A DNA stretch of 64,000 nt from Candidatus Heimdallarchaeota archaeon (GTDB taxonomy: Archaea; Asgardarchaeota; Heimdallarchaeia; Heimdallarchaeales; Heimdallarchaeaceae), in the NCBI GenBank assembly GCA_021399345.1, contig JAAFKI010000112.1, positions 109,753 through 173,752 on the forward strand, written 5' to 3'. The position numbers and the translations under genes are program-made. This document shows, one piece after another, positions 1 through 4,204 of the stretch. Position 1 is the first letter of the stretch. Each line of letters starts with the position of its first letter. The notes under the pieces were generated by a model. It had not been told where the DNA came from. It was given only the letters and a program-made list of their open reading frames with translations, and made no database searches.

Positions 1-167
1 TTTATTTCACCTCTTTTGTGATCAGCTTCTTTGTACTCCACCAGAAGAGGATGGGTACTTTCCTGACCGTGCACAACTGTTTGTGGTGAAGTTGACTAAT
101 CTTGCCATGCGTCCTCTACCTAGTTATGGGGAGATGTAGGAAAGAGAAGCATGGGTGTTTTTTTTTC
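1..167. other. Left-edge non-coding stretch with T-run
   Basis: I see no open reading frame here. Read on the minus strand, positions 7-13 give GAGGTGA, a good ribosome binding site for a gene that would start beyond the left edge. Read on the plus strand there are short helices: AGAGGA 46-51 with TCCTCT 112-117, and CACAA 72-76 with TTGTG 81-85. The stretch ends in nine T residues at 158-166, which would suit an archaeal terminator of an RNA entering from the left. The two readings are alternatives. Confidence 0.3.
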
Positions 168-173
168 TTCGGG

Positions 174-181
174 TTTATATA
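174..181 (+). promoter_or_regulatory. TATA box for the structured RNA
   Basis: TTTATATA lies about 25-30 bp before the first helices of the structured RNA, the usual archaeal TATA-to-start distance, so transcription would begin near 200-206. The same bases read on the minus strand also look like a TATA box and could serve the gene beyond the left edge. Confidence 0.45.
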
Positions 182-203
182 TGAAAGTACACATAGAAAG
201 CTA

Positions 204-585
204 GATAGTGTGCGCTTCAGCACCTGCCTGTTTCGCAACTACACAAGTGGTTGTCTCTCAGTGAACTTACAATGAAACGGGGAGCCTAGCTAGCTCTATG
301 CTGAAGGTCCACTTACTATTCCAGAACAAAGTCTGGATGACTTCCCCTCAACGCACGTGAGGGGACCCACTTAAACGACGGTTAGAAAGCCTCTGGCAAG
401 TTTAACCAAGTTTCATAACGTGCGTGATACAGGTATCAGGGGAGCAAGATGAAAAACTTGCAGCACACGAACATTCATCTTAGCTCAGATCCTGATCCTT
501 AGCAGACGAAGTGTCTGCGGTAGTGAGTGTTTCAGCAAGAAACAATCAGCGCGATAGAGATCAACCAGATAGAAGGTTGATCAAG
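204..585 (+). ncRNA. Candidate structured RNA with pseudoknot
   Basis: No ORF fits this GC-richer stretch, but it folds densely. A long helix 215-222/299-306 (CTTCAGCA/TGCTGAAG) encloses hairpins 236-242/247-253 and 282-285/293-296. Further hairpins are 320-325/332-337, 344-350/358-364 (CCCCTCA/TGAGGGG), 371-376/400-405, 502-507/513-518, 529-533/539-543 and 559-566/575-582. An extended hairpin pairs 435-440 with 491-496 and 442-453 with 474-486 around one bulged A. The whole 7-nt loop ACGCACG (351-357) is complementary to CGTGCGT at 419-425, giving a pseudoknot. A G-U pair in helix 236-253 would become a C-A mismatch on the other strand, which favours + transcription, as does the TATA box upstream. 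I cannot match it to RNase P, SRP RNA or another known class; ends are estimates. Confidence 0.55.
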
Positions 586-647: not shown

Positions 648-791
648 TTATAGATATCTTACTGCTACTAGAGCTCCTCCAAAAACTACACCAAGAGCAT
701 ATAGAAATACTGGCAGAGCGATTCGGAGAATTCTCCAGAGATGTACAACTGGTCTTTCAATTTTATAGATCCATTGTGGTCTGTTTATCAT
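648..791 (-). CDS. 47-residue membrane microprotein
   Basis: This small gene encodes 47 residues. The start ATG is preceded by GGAGGTGAAAAAGA, a leader identical to that of the 138-residue membrane protein gene at 2037-2453. The protein has a basic, tryptophan-containing amphipathic N-terminus (MINRPQWIYKIERP) followed by one hydrophobic segment of about 20 residues (roughly 24-44, rich in L, V, F and G). It is probably a single-pass membrane peptide with the N-terminus in the cytoplasm. It is the last gene of the leftward set and lies downstream of the basic microprotein gene at 838-984, so it may share its promoter. I do not recognise a family. The strong ribosome site and the terminator behind it are the main reasons to believe it. 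Confidence 0.6.
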   Translation of the reverse strand: MINRPQWIYKIERPVVHLWRILRIALPVFLYALGVVFGGALVAVRYL

Positions 792-837: not shown

Positions 838-984
838 TTACCCTGCAAGAGGGTATTGCTGAAAAGCTAAACTTAAACGAGCTTTAGATCTGAGGGCGCG
901 ACGAGCTTTCTTGAGCTGCTTTAACTCCTTTTGGAGTCCCCTAACCTTTTGATCCAACAAGTTTGAAACTTCATCATGGTTCAT
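838..984 (-). CDS. Basic coiled microprotein S1 (48 aa)
   Basis: This 48-residue reading frame starts at an ATG behind AAGGTGA. It is strongly basic and helical: a heptad-like N-terminal part (VSNLLDQKVRGLQKELKQL) leads into an Arg/Lys-rich stretch (KKARRALRSKAR). It aligns without gaps to the 48-residue protein at 2892-3038 (22 of 48 identical by eye), and its first 24 residues also match the protein at 3050-3238. Such family conservation supports a real gene. The basic tail suggests nucleic-acid or membrane-surface binding, but this is inference. Its promoter carries a TATA box at about 1034-1041 with a palindrome (1012-1032) placed over the expected transcription start and another at 1084-1104, so it is probably repressed, most simply by the zinc-ribbon protein at 1266-1706. 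Confidence 0.65.
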   Translation of the reverse strand: MNHDEVSNLLDQKVRGLQKELKQLKKARRALRSKARLSLAFQQYPLAG

Positions 985-1011
985 TTTTTTTCACCTTGTG
1001 AATTCTTTCAC

Positions 1012-1041
1012 ATGTAGGACTTGTTGCGACATCATATATAA
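1012..1041 (-). promoter_or_regulatory. TATA box and 21-bp operator of S1
   Basis: On the minus strand the TATA box (about 1034-1041) is followed directly by a 21-bp imperfect palindrome at 1012-1032 (plus strand ATGTAGGAC...GCGACAT). A second, shorter dyad TGTGAA-AGAA-TTCACA (997-1012) abuts it. A protein bound here would cover the transcription start, the expected design of a repressor site. Its first 11 bases recur in the operator at 1717-1737. Confidence 0.6.
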
Positions 1042-1083
1042 GGGGCTTTGAGTAGGAAAATGTTGTCACAAAGAAAAAGGCTA

Positions 1084-1104
1084 ATGTCGGACTATGTGCG
1101 ACAT
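1084..1104. promoter_or_regulatory. Upstream 21-bp operator copy
   Basis: ATGTCGGAC...GTGCGACAT is the best copy of the palindrome, fitting ATGTCGnAC-N3-GTnCGACAT on both strands. It starts exactly 72 bp from the copy at 1012. A half site ATGTCGC also occurs at 1219-1225. Paired sites at this spacing would allow cooperative binding or looping. Confidence 0.6.
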
Positions 1105-1265
1105 CTTAAACATATGTGTAAAGGCTTGCACACACGCAATTCACCTATTTAGAAACGTTAAACAACAGTTAAAGGGCTTTTCAGATTTGCGGTAAAAATT
1201 ACCTATAATATTAATAAGATGTCGCCTTTAAGACAACTTGAAAGAACAAAAAAAAGATTATAAAA

Positions 1266-1706
1266 CTACCCTATTCGATCAGTGGAATCAGCTTTAGATT
1301 TTGCCTTAGATGAGGAAGAGGCTACAATCTCTGAAACCTCAGGATAAGTGGTAACTGTAACTGCTTCAACTTCTTGATCTGTCTCTACTCCAATCTTATG
1401 AAGTGCCTTAACACGTTTATCTGTTAAGAAGAAGTCAGCCATTTTAATCCAACTAGTAGTCACCAAAACAGGGAAACTATTAAAATCTAATGCACAATTA
1501 TGGGTATCTTCAGTTAAATCTTGTATTGTATCAATAGCTCCACATTTCAAACATATTCTTAAGCGAGAAGATTTTTTGTATAAATCATTCATTGTTTCCT
1601 GATACAAATGTAAGCCTTGATTAAGCGGAGCATCCCATAAGTCAATAGCAAAGTGTTTTGCTCGGGATCGAATTACTTTCTTTTTTGCATTAGACATATC
1701 TGCCAT
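1266..1706 (-). CDS. Zinc-ribbon protein R1, putative regulator
   Basis: I place the start at the ATG at 1706 (146 aa) rather than the in-frame ATG at 1718. GAGG lies six bases before it, and the 110 N-terminal residues then align with the paralogue at 3548-3946 with no gap, about 50% identical. Both have C52-x2-C55 and H69-x-C71, a small zinc-binding knuckle inside the conserved block SSRLRICLKCGAID, plus a conserved FFLTD...KAL.K.GVE segment. The C-terminal 35 residues are Ser/Lys-rich and unlike the paralogue. I know no named family. Its own upstream region carries the 21-bp palindrome also found twice at the S1 promoter, which suggests an autoregulated DNA-binding protein. A role in RNA or protein binding cannot be excluded. 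Confidence 0.75.
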   Translation of the reverse strand: MADMSNAKKKVIRSRAKHFAIDLWDAPLNQGLHLYQETMNDLYKKSSRLRICLKCGAIDTIQDLTEDTHNCALDFNSFPVLVTTSWIKMADFFLTDKRVKALHKIGVETDQEVEAVTVTTYPEVSEIVASSSSKAKSKADSTDRIG

Positions 1707-1716
1707 TTGTATCCTC

Positions 1717-1737
1717 ATGTATTATTAAGTCCTACAT
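1717..1737. promoter_or_regulatory. Operator copy in front of R1
   Basis: The minus strand reads ATGTAGGACTT...TACAT over 21 bp. Its first 11 bases are identical to the site at 1012-1032 and its spacing is the same. It lies between a TATA-like CTTTAAA (about 1738-1745) and the ribosome binding site of R1, so it would overlap the transcription start. This supports autoregulation of R1. Confidence 0.55.
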
Positions 1738-1810
1738 CATTTAAAGTTTGTCCCTTTGGCACAAATTTCCTATTCTTGGTTAAAGTATTAAATTTATAAA
1801 AAAAGAGAGC

Positions 1811-1960
1811 TTAAGATAAGTTTGCTAGAGATAAAAATGCTACTACAAACAAAGCAACTGAAAACACTATGAGTATTGTATACCCCAGGAGTGTTCCTAC
1901 GTTTGTTCTTGTTTTTTCTATCCACATTTTTCTTCTAGTGTTATTTACGTTTTTAGCCAT
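1811..1960 (-). CDS. 49-residue membrane microprotein
   Basis: The gene has an ATG start behind GAGGTGG and encodes 49 residues. A polar, basic N-terminus (MAKNVNNTRRKMWIEKTRTN) precedes one hydrophobic helix (about residues 24-45, rich in L, I, V, F and A), giving a single-pass membrane peptide. It lies between R1 and the 138-residue membrane protein, all on the minus strand, but with gaps of about 75-100 bp, so it may have its own promoter. It resembles the 47-residue microprotein at 648-791 in size, topology and basic N-terminus but not in recognisable sequence. The family is unknown to me. Confidence 0.55.
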   Translation of the reverse strand: MAKNVNNTRRKMWIEKTRTNVGTLLGYTILIVFSVALFVVAFLSLANLS

Positions 1961-2036
1961 TTATACCACCTCGGTTTTGTTTCTAAAAAAATTCGAAAGA
2001 AGAAAATGATTTTGATCACTTTCTTCCTCGTTACAA

Positions 2037-2453
2037 TTATCTAACTACATATATGTCAGCATTTGTTTTAGTAGACCTAACTAAAACACATTCTACACCA
2101 TCAACTATAGATATTCTAGTTAATTCCTCAGTCACATCATCAACTGCATCTAATCTAACTAAATCAACAACAGCTGTGTTACCTAAAGCTGCTCTAACCA
2201 CATATATATCAGCATAATTAATCTCATTAGTTCTGAGTACTTCAATTGCAGCATTATCTACTGAAGCAATTATCACATATTCAGAGTAATTTTCATTTGC
2301 AGCTACAACATTATTATAGGATAAGTTTATACTGGCTAGAGATACAATCAAAGCTACGATCAATGGTAGAGATACTAATAATATTCTAGTTAGGTTAATT
2401 TCAGGTCTAGTAAAATTTAGTCGAGCTAATAATTCTTTAACAGATCTTTTCAT
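2037..2453 (-). CDS. Single-pass protein with beta-type repeats
   Basis: The gene encodes 138 residues behind GGAGGTGAAAAAGA-ATG. A basic cytoplasmic N-terminus (about 20 residues) precedes a strong transmembrane helix (about 22-46). The external part is mostly alternating hydrophobic residues, as in beta strands, and looks like three related units; the phrase ADIYVVR occurs at the end of the first and at the C-terminus. No Cys pair or catalytic motif is visible. It may be a small surface or virion-like structural protein, but this is a guess from architecture. Neighbours are microproteins of unknown function. The shared leader with the gene at 648-791 suggests co-expression at the level of translation. 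Confidence 0.65.
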   Translation of the reverse strand: MKRSVKELLARLNFTRPEINLTRILLVSLPLIVALIVSLASINLSYNNVVAANENYSEYVIIASVDNAAIEVLRTNEINYADIYVVRAALGNTAVVDLVRLDAVDDVTEELTRISIVDGVECVLVRSTKTNADIYVVR

Positions 2454-2593
2454 TCTTTTTCACCTCCTAGAATTTTTCTTTTTTCTCCTGAATCTTTTTC
2501 AAGTAATTGTAAAAAATTAATGAACCCTTCATGGGCTCGGATTTGATCGTTCAGAGAGAGAGTTGTTTTAAACAGTGTATTCACCTTCACCAA

Positions 2594-2854
2594 TTAATAG
2601 TAAAGCGACCCAAACAGGAGCAATTTTTGAGCAAGTGCTTTGTCCTTAGCCTTTCTCACTTTGTTCTCTATGCTTTCCCTGGAAATCTCTTTATCAGGTC
2701 GGGACTTTTTGTTATCGCGATCAGATAATCCTTCCATAAGTTGCTTGATGAAAGAATAATAGAGATCCTCATCAATAAATTCAAAATCATACAAAACTTT
2801 CATATTGTCAATTACTATTTGGCGCACTGTTTCTACTTGAACTTTGGATGCCAT
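2594..2854 (-). CDS. Hypothetical helical protein (86 aa)
   Basis: The start ATG follows GAGGTGAAATGA. The product is soluble, charged and probably all-helical, with an acidic, aromatic N-terminal half (YDFEFIDEDLYYSFIKQL) and a Lys/Arg/Glu-rich C-terminal half. I recognise no domain. It lies within the leftward array, 140 bp upstream of the 138-residue membrane protein and 38 bp downstream of the basic microprotein at 2892-3038, so a shared transcript with the latter is likely. A reading frame of similar length on the opposite strand at 2531-2728 lacks a ribosome site and I treat it as a shadow. Confidence 0.6.
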   Translation of the reverse strand: MASKVQVETVRQIVIDNMKVLYDFEFIDEDLYYSFIKQLMEGLSDRDNKKSRPDKEISRESIENKVRKAKDKALAQKLLLFGSLYY

Positions 2855-2891
2855 TCATTTCACCTCTATTTGAAAATGGTAAGACTCTAGC

Positions 2892-3038
2892 TTACCCGTA
2901 AATCAGGTATTTCCTGATTGGAAATCTAGAACGAGCTTTTGCTCTTCTAGTGCGACGAGCTCTTTTGAGCTTATTCAACTCCTTGCGGAGTGCCTTAATC
3001 TTTCGGTCCAAAATTATACTTACTTCTTGTTTATACAT
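2892..3038 (-). CDS. Basic coiled microprotein S3 (48 aa)
   Basis: Exactly 48 residues, ATG start preceded by GAGGTGTAAAGAA. It aligns end to end with S1 at 838-984: Glu-Val-Ser at 5-7, Leu-Asp at 10-11, Lys-Glu-Leu at 19-21, Ala-Arg-Arg at 27-29, Lys-Ala-Arg at 34-36, a Tyr at 44 and a final Gly are shared. The middle is extremely basic (KRARRTRRAKARSR). S1 and S3 therefore form a true family of tiny helical, Arg-rich proteins. It starts 12 bp after the stop of the 62-residue relative at 3050-3238 and is probably translated from the same message, under the TTACnGCA-type operators at 3265-3332. Confidence 0.65.
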   Translation of the reverse strand: MYKQEVSIILDRKIKALRKELNKLKRARRTRRAKARSRFPIRKYLIYG

Positions 3039-3049
3039 TTCTTTACACC

Positions 3050-3238
3050 TCAAATGTTTGCAAATCTCCTCAGGTTCAGGTTAGAGTAGAAGCTAATGGT
3101 TGCAGTCAGGTATTGCTCATAGATATCCAAGTTCTTGTCTGAATATCGGTTGGATAGAGTTTTCATGAGTTTATTGAGATCCTCGTAAAGTCTTCGAACC
3201 TCGGGATCCAGCAGTTTTTTTATTTCGTTTTTGTTCAT
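3050..3238 (-). CDS. Microprotein S2, S1/S3-related (62 aa)
   Basis: The gene has an ATG start after AAGGTGTAAAAAA. The first 24 residues (ending RLYEDLNKL) share the pattern M..xE[VI]xxLLDx.[VI]R.Lx.[ED]L of S1 and S3, with 11 of 24 identical to S1. The rest differs: it is Tyr/Asn-rich and helical rather than Arg-rich. It thus looks like a family member with an exchanged C-terminal half. It is first in a leftward transcript with S3. The promoter has a TATA-like CTTAAATA (about 3287-3296 region) followed at once by a 19-bp palindrome. No function is known. Confidence 0.6.
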   Translation of the reverse strand: MNKNEIKKLLDPEVRRLYEDLNKLMKTLSNRYSDKNLDIYEQYLTATISFYSNLNLRRFANI

Positions 3239-3264
3239 TTTTTTACACCTTAGGATTGGTTCTA

Positions 3265-3332
3265 TTACAGCATTGTGCAGTAACCTATTTAAGCATCGTT
3301 GTGCAGTAATAAATTACCGCATTTTGCAGTAA
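3265..3332. promoter_or_regulatory. Two TTACnGCA-N3-TGCnGTAA operators
   Basis: Two 19-bp palindromes fit TTACnGCA-N3-TGCnGTAA exactly, at 3265-3283 and 3314-3332. A lone half site TGCAGTAA sits between them at 3302-3309. The first palindrome lies directly downstream of the TATA-like element of the leftward S2/S3 transcript and would block its start. The same half site recurs at 3458-3465 and, inverted, at 3512-3519 near the promoter of the R2 gene, so one protein probably controls both divergent transcripts. Confidence 0.65.
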
Positions 3333-3455
3333 TAAAAGAAATATTATTAAAAACGACAAAATGACCATATAGGCGATATTTATGCTTATGAACTCGTATA
3401 ACCCCTTCAATAAATGCCATAAATAGGGGCAAATATTTCCGCTTAAGTGATTTTA

Positions 3456-3540
3456 TTTGCAGTAATAATATGACTTTGGGAAATTATTACCTTGAGATAT
3501 ACATATATATATTACTGCAAACAATAATATAGATAGGAGG
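3456..3540 (+). promoter_or_regulatory. Promoter, half operators and RBS of R2
   Basis: A TATA-like ATATATATATT run (about 3501-3513) is followed by an operator half site TTACTGCA (3512-3519) near the expected transcription start; another half site TGCAGTAA lies upstream at 3458-3465. GGAGG at 3536-3540 is a strong ribosome binding site and fixes the TTG start at 3548. The arrangement suggests that R2 represses itself. Confidence 0.55.
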
Positions 3541-3547
3541 TAAAATC

Positions 3548-3946
3548 TTGCCTGTAATTAAAAATGTTGAAAAAACACAAATCAAATCCAGAGCCCGTAG
3601 ATATGTGCAAGATTTAGCTGATGCTCCCTTAAGTACCGGTTTAGAATTATATAGTGAAACTATCTCAAAGCTCCATGATCGTTCTTCCCGATTGCGAATT
3701 TGTTTGAAGTGTGGAGCTATTGATAAAAAAGAGAGTCTTACTAACAGCAACCATCATTGTGCATCTGGCATTGATAAACTCCCTGTTATCATTCTTACAA
3801 ACTGGGTCATTTTGAAAAATTTCTTTCTCACTGACGAATACACTAAAGCGTTGCAAAAGCTTGGCGTTGAACCAATTCTGAAGGAGTCTAGTCCAAGCAA
3901 AAATACAAAACAAAAGGAAGAATCACTTGTTGAAAAAACAAAGTAA
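3548..3946 (+). CDS. Zinc-ribbon protein R2, putative regulator
   Basis: The gene encodes 132 residues from a TTG start fixed by GGAGG eight bases upstream. It is a gapless paralogue of R1 over 110 residues, about 55 identities by eye, with the same C52-x2-C55...H69-x-C71 zinc knuckle and the same FFLTD segment; the Lys/Ser/Glu-rich tail is unrelated. It is transcribed away from the S2/S3 genes across a region with four to five copies of the TGCnGTAA half site. By position it is the natural binder of that site, as R1 is of the ATGT...ACAT site. I infer paired autoregulators that diverged in DNA specificity. No named family is recognised. Confidence 0.75.
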   Translation: MPVIKNVEKTQIKSRARRYVQDLADAPLSTGLELYSETISKLHDRSSRLRICLKCGAIDKKESLTNSNHHCASGIDKLPVIILTNWVILKNFFLTDEYTKALQKLGVEPILKESSPSKNTKQKEESLVEKTK

Positions 3947-3962
3947 AGAAAACAATTTCTTC

Positions 3963-4204
3963 TTATTCTTTCAGTTTCTTCTTTAATTCTTTATTTGTAG
4001 GTTCTATAAGAATCGACCCATCTTCAAATACTATTGTTGGAACTCTTCCCCGCCTTTGTTTAATTCTTCTATCTTCTTTGCCCCTTCTGCACTTGAATCG
4101 GTATCTATCCAAGCATAAGGGATACCTCTTTCATCAAGATATTTTTTTGTTCTTGTACAATCACCACACCATTCAGATCCATATATTACTTTAATTTTGG
4201 TCAT
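3963..4204 (-). pseudogene. Frameshifted glutaredoxin-like protein
   Basis: The minus strand encodes a typical 80-residue archaeal glutaredoxin-like protein: beta strand KIKVIYGS, active site WCGDC, then DERGIPYAWID. Near 4050-4058 the frame breaks: read straight on, it stops after three dozen more bases. With one base restored in the AAA/GGCGGGG tract, the frame continues through the expected cis-proline motif VPTIVFEDGS and ends at the stop at 3963-3965. The total length (242 bp) is one base short of 81 codons. This is either a recent inactivating deletion or a sequencing error in homopolymers; the intact remainder favours something recent. Its end lies 17 bp from the convergent R2 gene. 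Confidence 0.75.

What the first reader, a model, noticed from the sequence alone, without database searches (positions are those of the whole stretch)
838..3946. Duplicated regulator-operator-microprotein modules
Seen: R1 and R2 (about 50% identical over 110 gapless residues) bound the array. Each is linked to a related microprotein (S1; S2 and S3) whose promoter carries a palindrome just past the TATA box. The palindrome differs between the two sides (ATGT...ACAT, 21 bp; TTACnGCA-N3-TGCnGTAA, 19 bp) and recurs near the matching regulator gene. Inference: one module was duplicated and its DNA specificity diverged, giving two insulated circuits that control Arg-rich microproteins. I know no described system like it.
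Basis: partly seen in the sequence, partly recalled or inferred. Interest (0 to 1): 0.85.

Follow-up and report, generated by a model that had tools for sequence, protein, structure and literature searches.

The report
Duplicated archaeal repressor–operator–microprotein modules
One genus of Heimdall-type Asgard archaea carries side-by-side copies of a gene module in which a small, previously undescribed zinc-type protein appears to repress itself and a set of tiny soluble and membrane proteins through its own DNA palindrome, so the copies form a natural series of repressor–operator pairs with different specificities.

Summary
R1 and R2 (50% identical) belong to a family with no Pfam, NCBIfam, PHROG or PDB relative. 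A confident predicted core has no Foldseek match. The family occurs in all 21 genomes of one Heimdall genus plus one sister genus, among 228 phylum genomes. Their palindromes lie directly after the TATA box of R and S genes and are conserved in orthologues. The class-2 palindrome occurs exactly at only two sites in the 3.27-Mb genome, both in the S3 promoter. Three operator classes need only two changes on the R tree; in one subclade the S3 promoter carries the class-1 operator because an R1-like protein sits there. Best reading: paralogous autorepressors, each with its own operator. R2's own promoter shows half-sites only. DNA binding by R, the signal and the microproteins' function are untested.

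The parts
1266..1718 (-). R1: putative zinc-type (CxxCG...HxC) autorepressor; likely start at ATG 1706 (MADMSN)
3548..3946 (+). R2: paralogue of R1, divergent from the S3 operon
838..984 (-). S1: 48-aa Arg-rich coiled-coil microprotein with conserved C-terminal Gly
2892..3041 (-). S2: Arg-rich microprotein, paralogue of S1
3050..3238 (-). S3: 62-aa microprotein, first gene of the R2-linked operon; weakly related to S1/S2 at the N-terminus
2594..2854 (-). U86: 86-aa soluble protein of the same operon, strongly conserved (pN/pS 0.12)
2037..2453 (-). TA2: 138-aa protein with one N-terminal membrane span and about 13-residue repeats; TA family
1811..1960 (-). TB2: 49-aa single-span membrane microprotein; TB family
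648..791 (-). TA1: 47-aa single-span membrane microprotein of the S1 operon; TA family
3265..3283 (-). class-2 operator TTACTGCACAATGCTGTAA directly after the S3 TATA box
3314..3332 (-). class-2 operator TTACTGCAAAATGCGGTAA, second copy
3302..3309 (-). class-2 half-site TTACTGCA between the two full class-2 sites
3458..3465 (-). class-2 half-site TTACTGCA, conserved
3512..3519 (+). class-2 half-site directly after the R2 TATA box, invariant in 7 orthologues
1012..1032 (-). class-1 operator directly after the S1 TATA box
1084..1104 (-). class-1 operator, second copy upstream of S1
1717..1737 (-). class-1 operator directly after the R1 TATA box
1191..1203 (-). shared palindrome GGTAATTTTTACC, module 1
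3428..3440 (-). shared palindrome GGAAATATTTGCC, module 2
3479..3491 (-). shared palindrome GGTAATAATTTCC, just upstream of the R2 TATA box
1758..1770 (-). degenerate copy of the shared palindrome (GGAAATTTGTGCC) upstream of the R1 TATA box
   Evidence: within-one-mismatch counts
431..550 (-). structured RNA element in the TA1-TB1 gap of module 1 (module-2 copy is lost in this genome)

Best explanation
R1 and R2 are paralogous, probably dimeric, zinc-containing DNA-binding autorepressors of a lineage-specific family. Each binds its own palindrome placed immediately downstream of the TATA box of its own gene and of the adjacent operon, where it would block assembly of the transcription start complex. 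R1 would control itself and S1-TA1-(RNA)-TB1; R2 would control itself and S3-S2-U86-TA2-TB2. Repression is lifted by an unknown signal, and a common activator may act on both modules through the shared GGNAA-N3-TTNCC element. The outputs are small Arg-rich coiled-coil proteins and single-span membrane microproteins, most likely acting at the membrane. The module arose by tandem duplication inside the genus, and operator sequence changed together with R; residues 83-88 of R are the best candidate specificity determinants. Shown: genes, conservation, operator positions, agreement of operator class with R clade, covarying RNA. Inferred: DNA binding, repression, activator, membrane role.
For: R-gene promoters carry ATGT-N12..15-ACAT within 75 bp of the start far more often than other genes of the same contigs: exact 27/82 against 12/330 (P 1e-12), within one mismatch 61/82 against 56/330 (P 8e-23); related sequences are not independent. 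Operators are conserved at a fixed place after TATA in orthologues. Class follows R clade, two changes for three classes. In six genomes where no R2 was found, an R1-like protein sits at the R2 position; in the five whose S3 promoter could be read, it carries class-1 operators in the same slot. Class-2 exact sites exist only here in the genome. Residues before and in the TSW helix differ between classes: T83/S85 in all 15 class-1 proteins, L83/N85/I88 in all 8 class-2 proteins, P or Q83/S85 in 5 class-3 proteins. R1 and R2 models share one fold with a CxxC-HxC site. In Pyrococcus TrmBL1, sites downstream of TATA repress and sites upstream activate (PMC4706686). S paralogues elsewhere lead operons with an MFS efflux pump and a divergent HTH regulator, and have their own palindromes.
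Against: No binding or expression data exist. The predicted R fold has no known DNA-binding relative and no hit to a known DNA-binding family. R2's own promoter has only half-sites. The class-to-clade agreement rests on two independent changes, so it could partly be shared descent, and the specificity residues are confounded with phylogeny. R3 promoters also begin ATGTCGG, so cross-talk with R1 is possible. The short R clade of C41:89796 shows no such site near its start.
Confidence: 0.74

Rival explanations
1. The palindromes are bound by another, unlinked transcription factor of the cell. R proteins do something else, for example as co-regulators or zinc proteins of the same membrane process, and are merely co-regulated with the S operons.
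For: No known DNA-binding domain in R by sequence or fold. The third palindrome GGNAA-N3-TTNCC is shared by both modules and must be read by something common.
Against: Operator class changes with the R clade, and the S3 promoter carries the operator class of whichever R sits next to it. Class-2 exact sites exist nowhere else in the genome. Several R subfamilies have their own dyad at the same place.
Confidence: 0.15
2. The modules are toxin-antitoxin or addiction units: single-span microproteins are toxins, S or R are antitoxin and autorepressor, and paralogous copies diverged to avoid cross-neutralisation.
For: Autorepressor-like gene plus small membrane proteins in one operon, duplicated and diverged. 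Short fast-evolving membrane proteins (pN/pS 0.55-0.60 for TA).
Against: Present in nearly all genomes of the genus with conserved order, i.e. vertical rather than sporadic. Five or more genes per operon. No relatives in viral contigs and no match to Pfam or PHROG families.
Confidence: 0.08
3. The modules are remains of an integrated virus or plasmid control region.
For: Compact array of small unknown genes with duplicated repressors; a mobile-looking repeat sits in the array.
Against: No R relatives in IMG/VR, no PHROG match, conserved synteny across the genus, and ordinary long metabolic-type genes on the right flank.
Confidence: 0.03

Closest known systems
TrmB/TrmBL1-type archaeal regulators with palindromic operators
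   Same: Palindromic operator; repression when the site lies downstream of TATA and activation when upstream (PMC4706686).
   Different: TrmB proteins are winged-helix proteins (PF01978 per PMC9426492 abstract). R has no such domain by Pfam or fold, is genus-restricted and is about 130-150 aa.
ArsR/HTH_20-type autorepressors (as found next to the S paralogue of L129)
   Same: A divergent regulator, a palindrome at the TATA box and an S microprotein as first gene.
   Different: R lacks HTH_5/HTH_20 similarity; R operators are 19-23 bp and differ by paralogue.
Small archaeal zinc-finger and zinc-ribbon proteins
   Same: One CxxC...HxC motif in a small protein.
   Different: Only chance-level hits to Zn_ribbon_RPB9 and zf-FCS models. 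R has two long N-terminal helices and a conserved TSWxKLxxFF helix.
Type II toxin-antitoxin autoregulated operons
   Same: Small operon with an apparent autoregulator, duplicated copies.
   Different: No known toxin or antitoxin family; vertically conserved multi-gene membrane microprotein operon.

Membership tests
TrmB / winged-helix archaeal regulators | TrmB or other HTH/wHTH domain detectable by profile | tested here: not met
   72 members, no HTH family among Pfam hits at E up to 0.1; PDB profile search best E 0.077 to a non-regulator
TrmB / winged-helix archaeal regulators | wHTH fold in the structure | tested here: not met
   AF2 models of R2 and R1 (pLDDT 81 and 79) give no PDB match with E below 3
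Autorepressor with operator downstream of TATA (functional kind) | Palindrome directly after TATA in own promoter | tested here: met
   R1; family-wide enrichment; R2 only half-site
Autorepressor with operator downstream of TATA (functional kind) | Same palindrome at the target promoter | tested here: met
   S1 and S3 promoters
Autorepressor with operator downstream of TATA (functional kind) | The protein binds the palindrome and represses | not testable with these tools
   needs gel shift and in vitro transcription
Zinc-finger / zinc-ribbon family | Match to a curated zinc-finger family | tested here: not met
   best chance-level hits E about 0.03 in 1-2 of 72 members
Zinc-finger / zinc-ribbon family | Metal-ligand pattern C-x2-C ... 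H-x-C conserved | tested here: met
   C52, C55 invariant; H69, C71 at least 90%
Type II toxin-antitoxin | Known toxin or antitoxin family | tested here: not met
   Pfam and PHROGs; PADLOC not run
Type II toxin-antitoxin | Toxicity neutralised by partner | not testable with these tools
   needs expression tests
Viral or plasmid control module | Relatives on viral contigs | tested here: not met
   0 confirmed of 32 candidate stretches in IMG/VR; plasmid collection not searched
Known structured RNA family (Rfam 15) | Match at or near a gathering score | tested here: not met

The most novel reading that the evidence does not exclude
R founds a new fold class of DNA-binding regulator, confined to one Asgard lineage, that has radiated within one genomic neighbourhood into a natural set of mutually distinct repressor-operator pairs tuned by residues 83-88. 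Each duplicated module also carries a new covarying RNA and membrane microproteins, forming a lineage-specific envelope control system.
Probability: 0.45. Interest if true: 0.78.

Novelty: new variant of a known kind. Interest (0 to 1): 0.64.

Why it matters
Autorepressor circuits are a known kind, but this regulator family and its predicted fold have no relative in the libraries searched, and to my knowledge Asgard gene regulation is almost unstudied experimentally. The array gives a series of orthologues and paralogues in which protein residues and operator bases can be seen changing together. That makes the question of how paralogous repressors escape cross-talk directly testable with purified proteins. 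It also names a new RNA element and new membrane microprotein families in the archaea nearest to eukaryotes.

Tried and rejected
Single-promoter palindrome test against dinucleotide shuffles: not significant on its own (median P 0.09 for S promoters, 0.60 for R promoters), so the case was moved to recurrence, position and conservation. Rfam at gathering and relaxed thresholds: nothing. Viral origin: no relatives in IMG/VR. Known families: Pfam, PHROGs, NCBIfam, PDB sequences, and Foldseek on PDB and BFVD all negative for R. Wider regulon: the other operator-like sites on contig C110 lie inside reading frames, so no evidence for distant targets; the C112 site was not examined. MAFFT alignment of RNA copies from both modules misplaced the 3' arm and gave almost no covariation; the module-1 set alone is too similar to test; the covariance-model alignment solved this, with the caveat that it leans towards the model, although slid controls stay low. 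The phylum-wide hit in G153 is a 38-residue stretch inside a 390-residue frame and was discarded.
Full report
SETTING. The window is G000:C41:109753-173752, in a 3.27-Mb draft genome. All named relatives of R are Candidatus Heimdallarchaeota or Asgard-group MAGs.

WHAT IS THERE. R1 and R2 are two of at least eight R paralogues, all on this contig; one of them, at C41:108525-108886, looks broken. Across 71 relatives aligned with R2, R48, C52, C55, G56, T84, W86 and F93 are invariant and H69, C71, P79 and F92 nearly so. AlphaFold2 gives the same secondary structure for R2 and R1: two long helices, a small strand pair around CxxC, a strand, and two short helices of which the first carries TSWxKLxxFF. 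Core pLDDT is mostly above 90. No match was found by Pfam, NCBIfam, PHROGs, PDB sequence or Foldseek. In 228 genomes of the phylum, R occurs in all 21 genomes of this genus and one of two other genera in the family; one short hit elsewhere was discarded.

MODULE ANATOMY. In complete orthologous loci the order is R2 divergent from S3 > S > U86 > TA > TB > R1 > S > TA > TB > R3. All small frames tested show fewer amino-acid than silent changes (pooled pN/pS 0.12-0.60); some pairs have few changes, so the individual ratios are rough. S occurs in 19 of 21 genomes of the genus.

OPERATORS. Class 1: ATGTCGGA-N5-TCCGACAT type, 21 bp. Class 2: TTACTGCA-N3-TGCNGTAA, 19 bp. Class 3: ATGTCAT-N7-ATGACAT type, 21 bp, in R2 orthologues of L102, L118 and L122. 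All lie directly after the TATA box. Exact class-2 sites in the genome: two, both in the S3 promoter. Exact class-1 sites: four, two in the S1 promoter; the R1 site has one mismatch. Over the whole family ATGT-N12..15-ACAT is strongly enriched just upstream of R genes. In six genomes where no R2 was found, the R next to S3 belongs to a clade that is sister to R1 (97/78). The five of these whose S3 promoter could be read carry class-1 operators in the slot where class 2 sits in the window's relatives. Three classes need two changes on the tree.

PROTEIN SIDE. Positions that separate the classes cluster before and in the TSW helix: T83-T-S85-W in class 1, L83-T-N85-W with I88 in class 2, P or Q83-T-S85-W in class 3, plus H43 in class 2. 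This is correlation on few independent events.

SHARED ELEMENT. GGNAA-N3-TTNCC occurs exactly 18 times in 12 of 16 R|S3 regions (shuffle mean 0.07) and 5 times in 5 of 7 R>S regions (shuffle mean 0.03). At R2 it sits just upstream of TATA, and a degenerate copy sits just upstream of the R1 TATA box; sites at such positions activate in the TrmBL1 case (PMC4706686). The modules thus appear to have private repressor sites and a common site.

RNA. The TA-TB gap of module 1 is conserved at 82-99% and its core recurs in module 2 of other genomes. Seven copies fold with z-scores of -2.9 to -5.2. A covariance model made from module-1 copies finds the module-2 copies and the distant L118, L120 and L122 copies; apart from two weak hits (E 0.2 and 0.6), every genome match lies in an R/S module. 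On the model alignment 12 pairs change on both sides, 25 cells, 0/500 shuffles reach this, and slid structures give at most 4 pairs. In the window the module-1 copy is at 431-550 and the module-2 copy is deleted (82-bp gap).

HOW IT MOST LIKELY WORKS. See best explanation. Steps shown by sequence: genes, synteny, operator position, conservation and class-clade agreement. Steps inferred: DNA binding, dimerisation, zinc, repression, a common activator, the signal and the membrane role. A clue to S function is that its paralogues elsewhere are first genes before an MFS efflux pump with a divergent HTH regulator and a TTCTCA-N6-TGAGAA palindrome (L129; L130-L132 similar), or before coiled-coil and ArsR-like proteins (L136; L126, L133-L137 similar). 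S may therefore be a general small partner of regulated membrane systems; this is conjecture.

KNOWN OR NEW. As a circuit this is a familiar kind (autorepressor, operator after TATA). As a protein family, operator series and RNA it matches nothing in the libraries searched. Four literature searches in the open-access library (two on Asgard regulators or microproteins, one on paralogue insulation, one on archaeal repressors) returned no paper that appeared to describe it; subscription papers and preprints were not covered.

Noticed in passing
window 64-425: A roughly 362-bp multi-copy repeat (MITE-like) lies between the RNA element and TB1; the orthologous site in L109 is empty, with CACG at both junctions. 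Its 85-bp end (window 341-425) is found in 20 of 38 related genomes, often in many copies and at contig ends.
   Followed up: partly
L129, L130, L131, L132: S-family microprotein encoded just before an MFS efflux-type transporter (tested in L129), with a divergent HTH (ArsR/HTH_20-like) gene in L129 and TTCTCA-N6-TGAGAA palindromes at the promoter.
   Followed up: partly
L126, L133-L137: A second S-like paralogue (43-62 aa) precedes a coiled-coil protein and a 445-aa protein with an ArsR-like C-terminal domain (tested in L136); its promoter carries TTACA-N6-TGTAA-like dyads.
   Followed up: partly
C41:30747, 91360, 97633 (L010, L013, L014): Other R genes lie next to secreted right-handed beta-helix (NosD-like) surface proteins and TPR proteins, with their own dyads after TATA (TATGTGT-N11-ACACATA; TGTAGACAT-N-ATGTCTACA in L086).
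   Followed up: partly
C41:108525-108886: An R copy appears broken into two frames in this genome but is intact in L104.
   Followed up: no
window 2037-2453: TA2 has an N-terminal membrane span followed by degenerate repeats of about 13 residues that differ strongly between genomes.
   Followed up: no
window 3963-4204: A glutaredoxin-like gene appears split by a frameshift into two overlapping frames (4031-4204 and 3963-4112).
   Followed up: no
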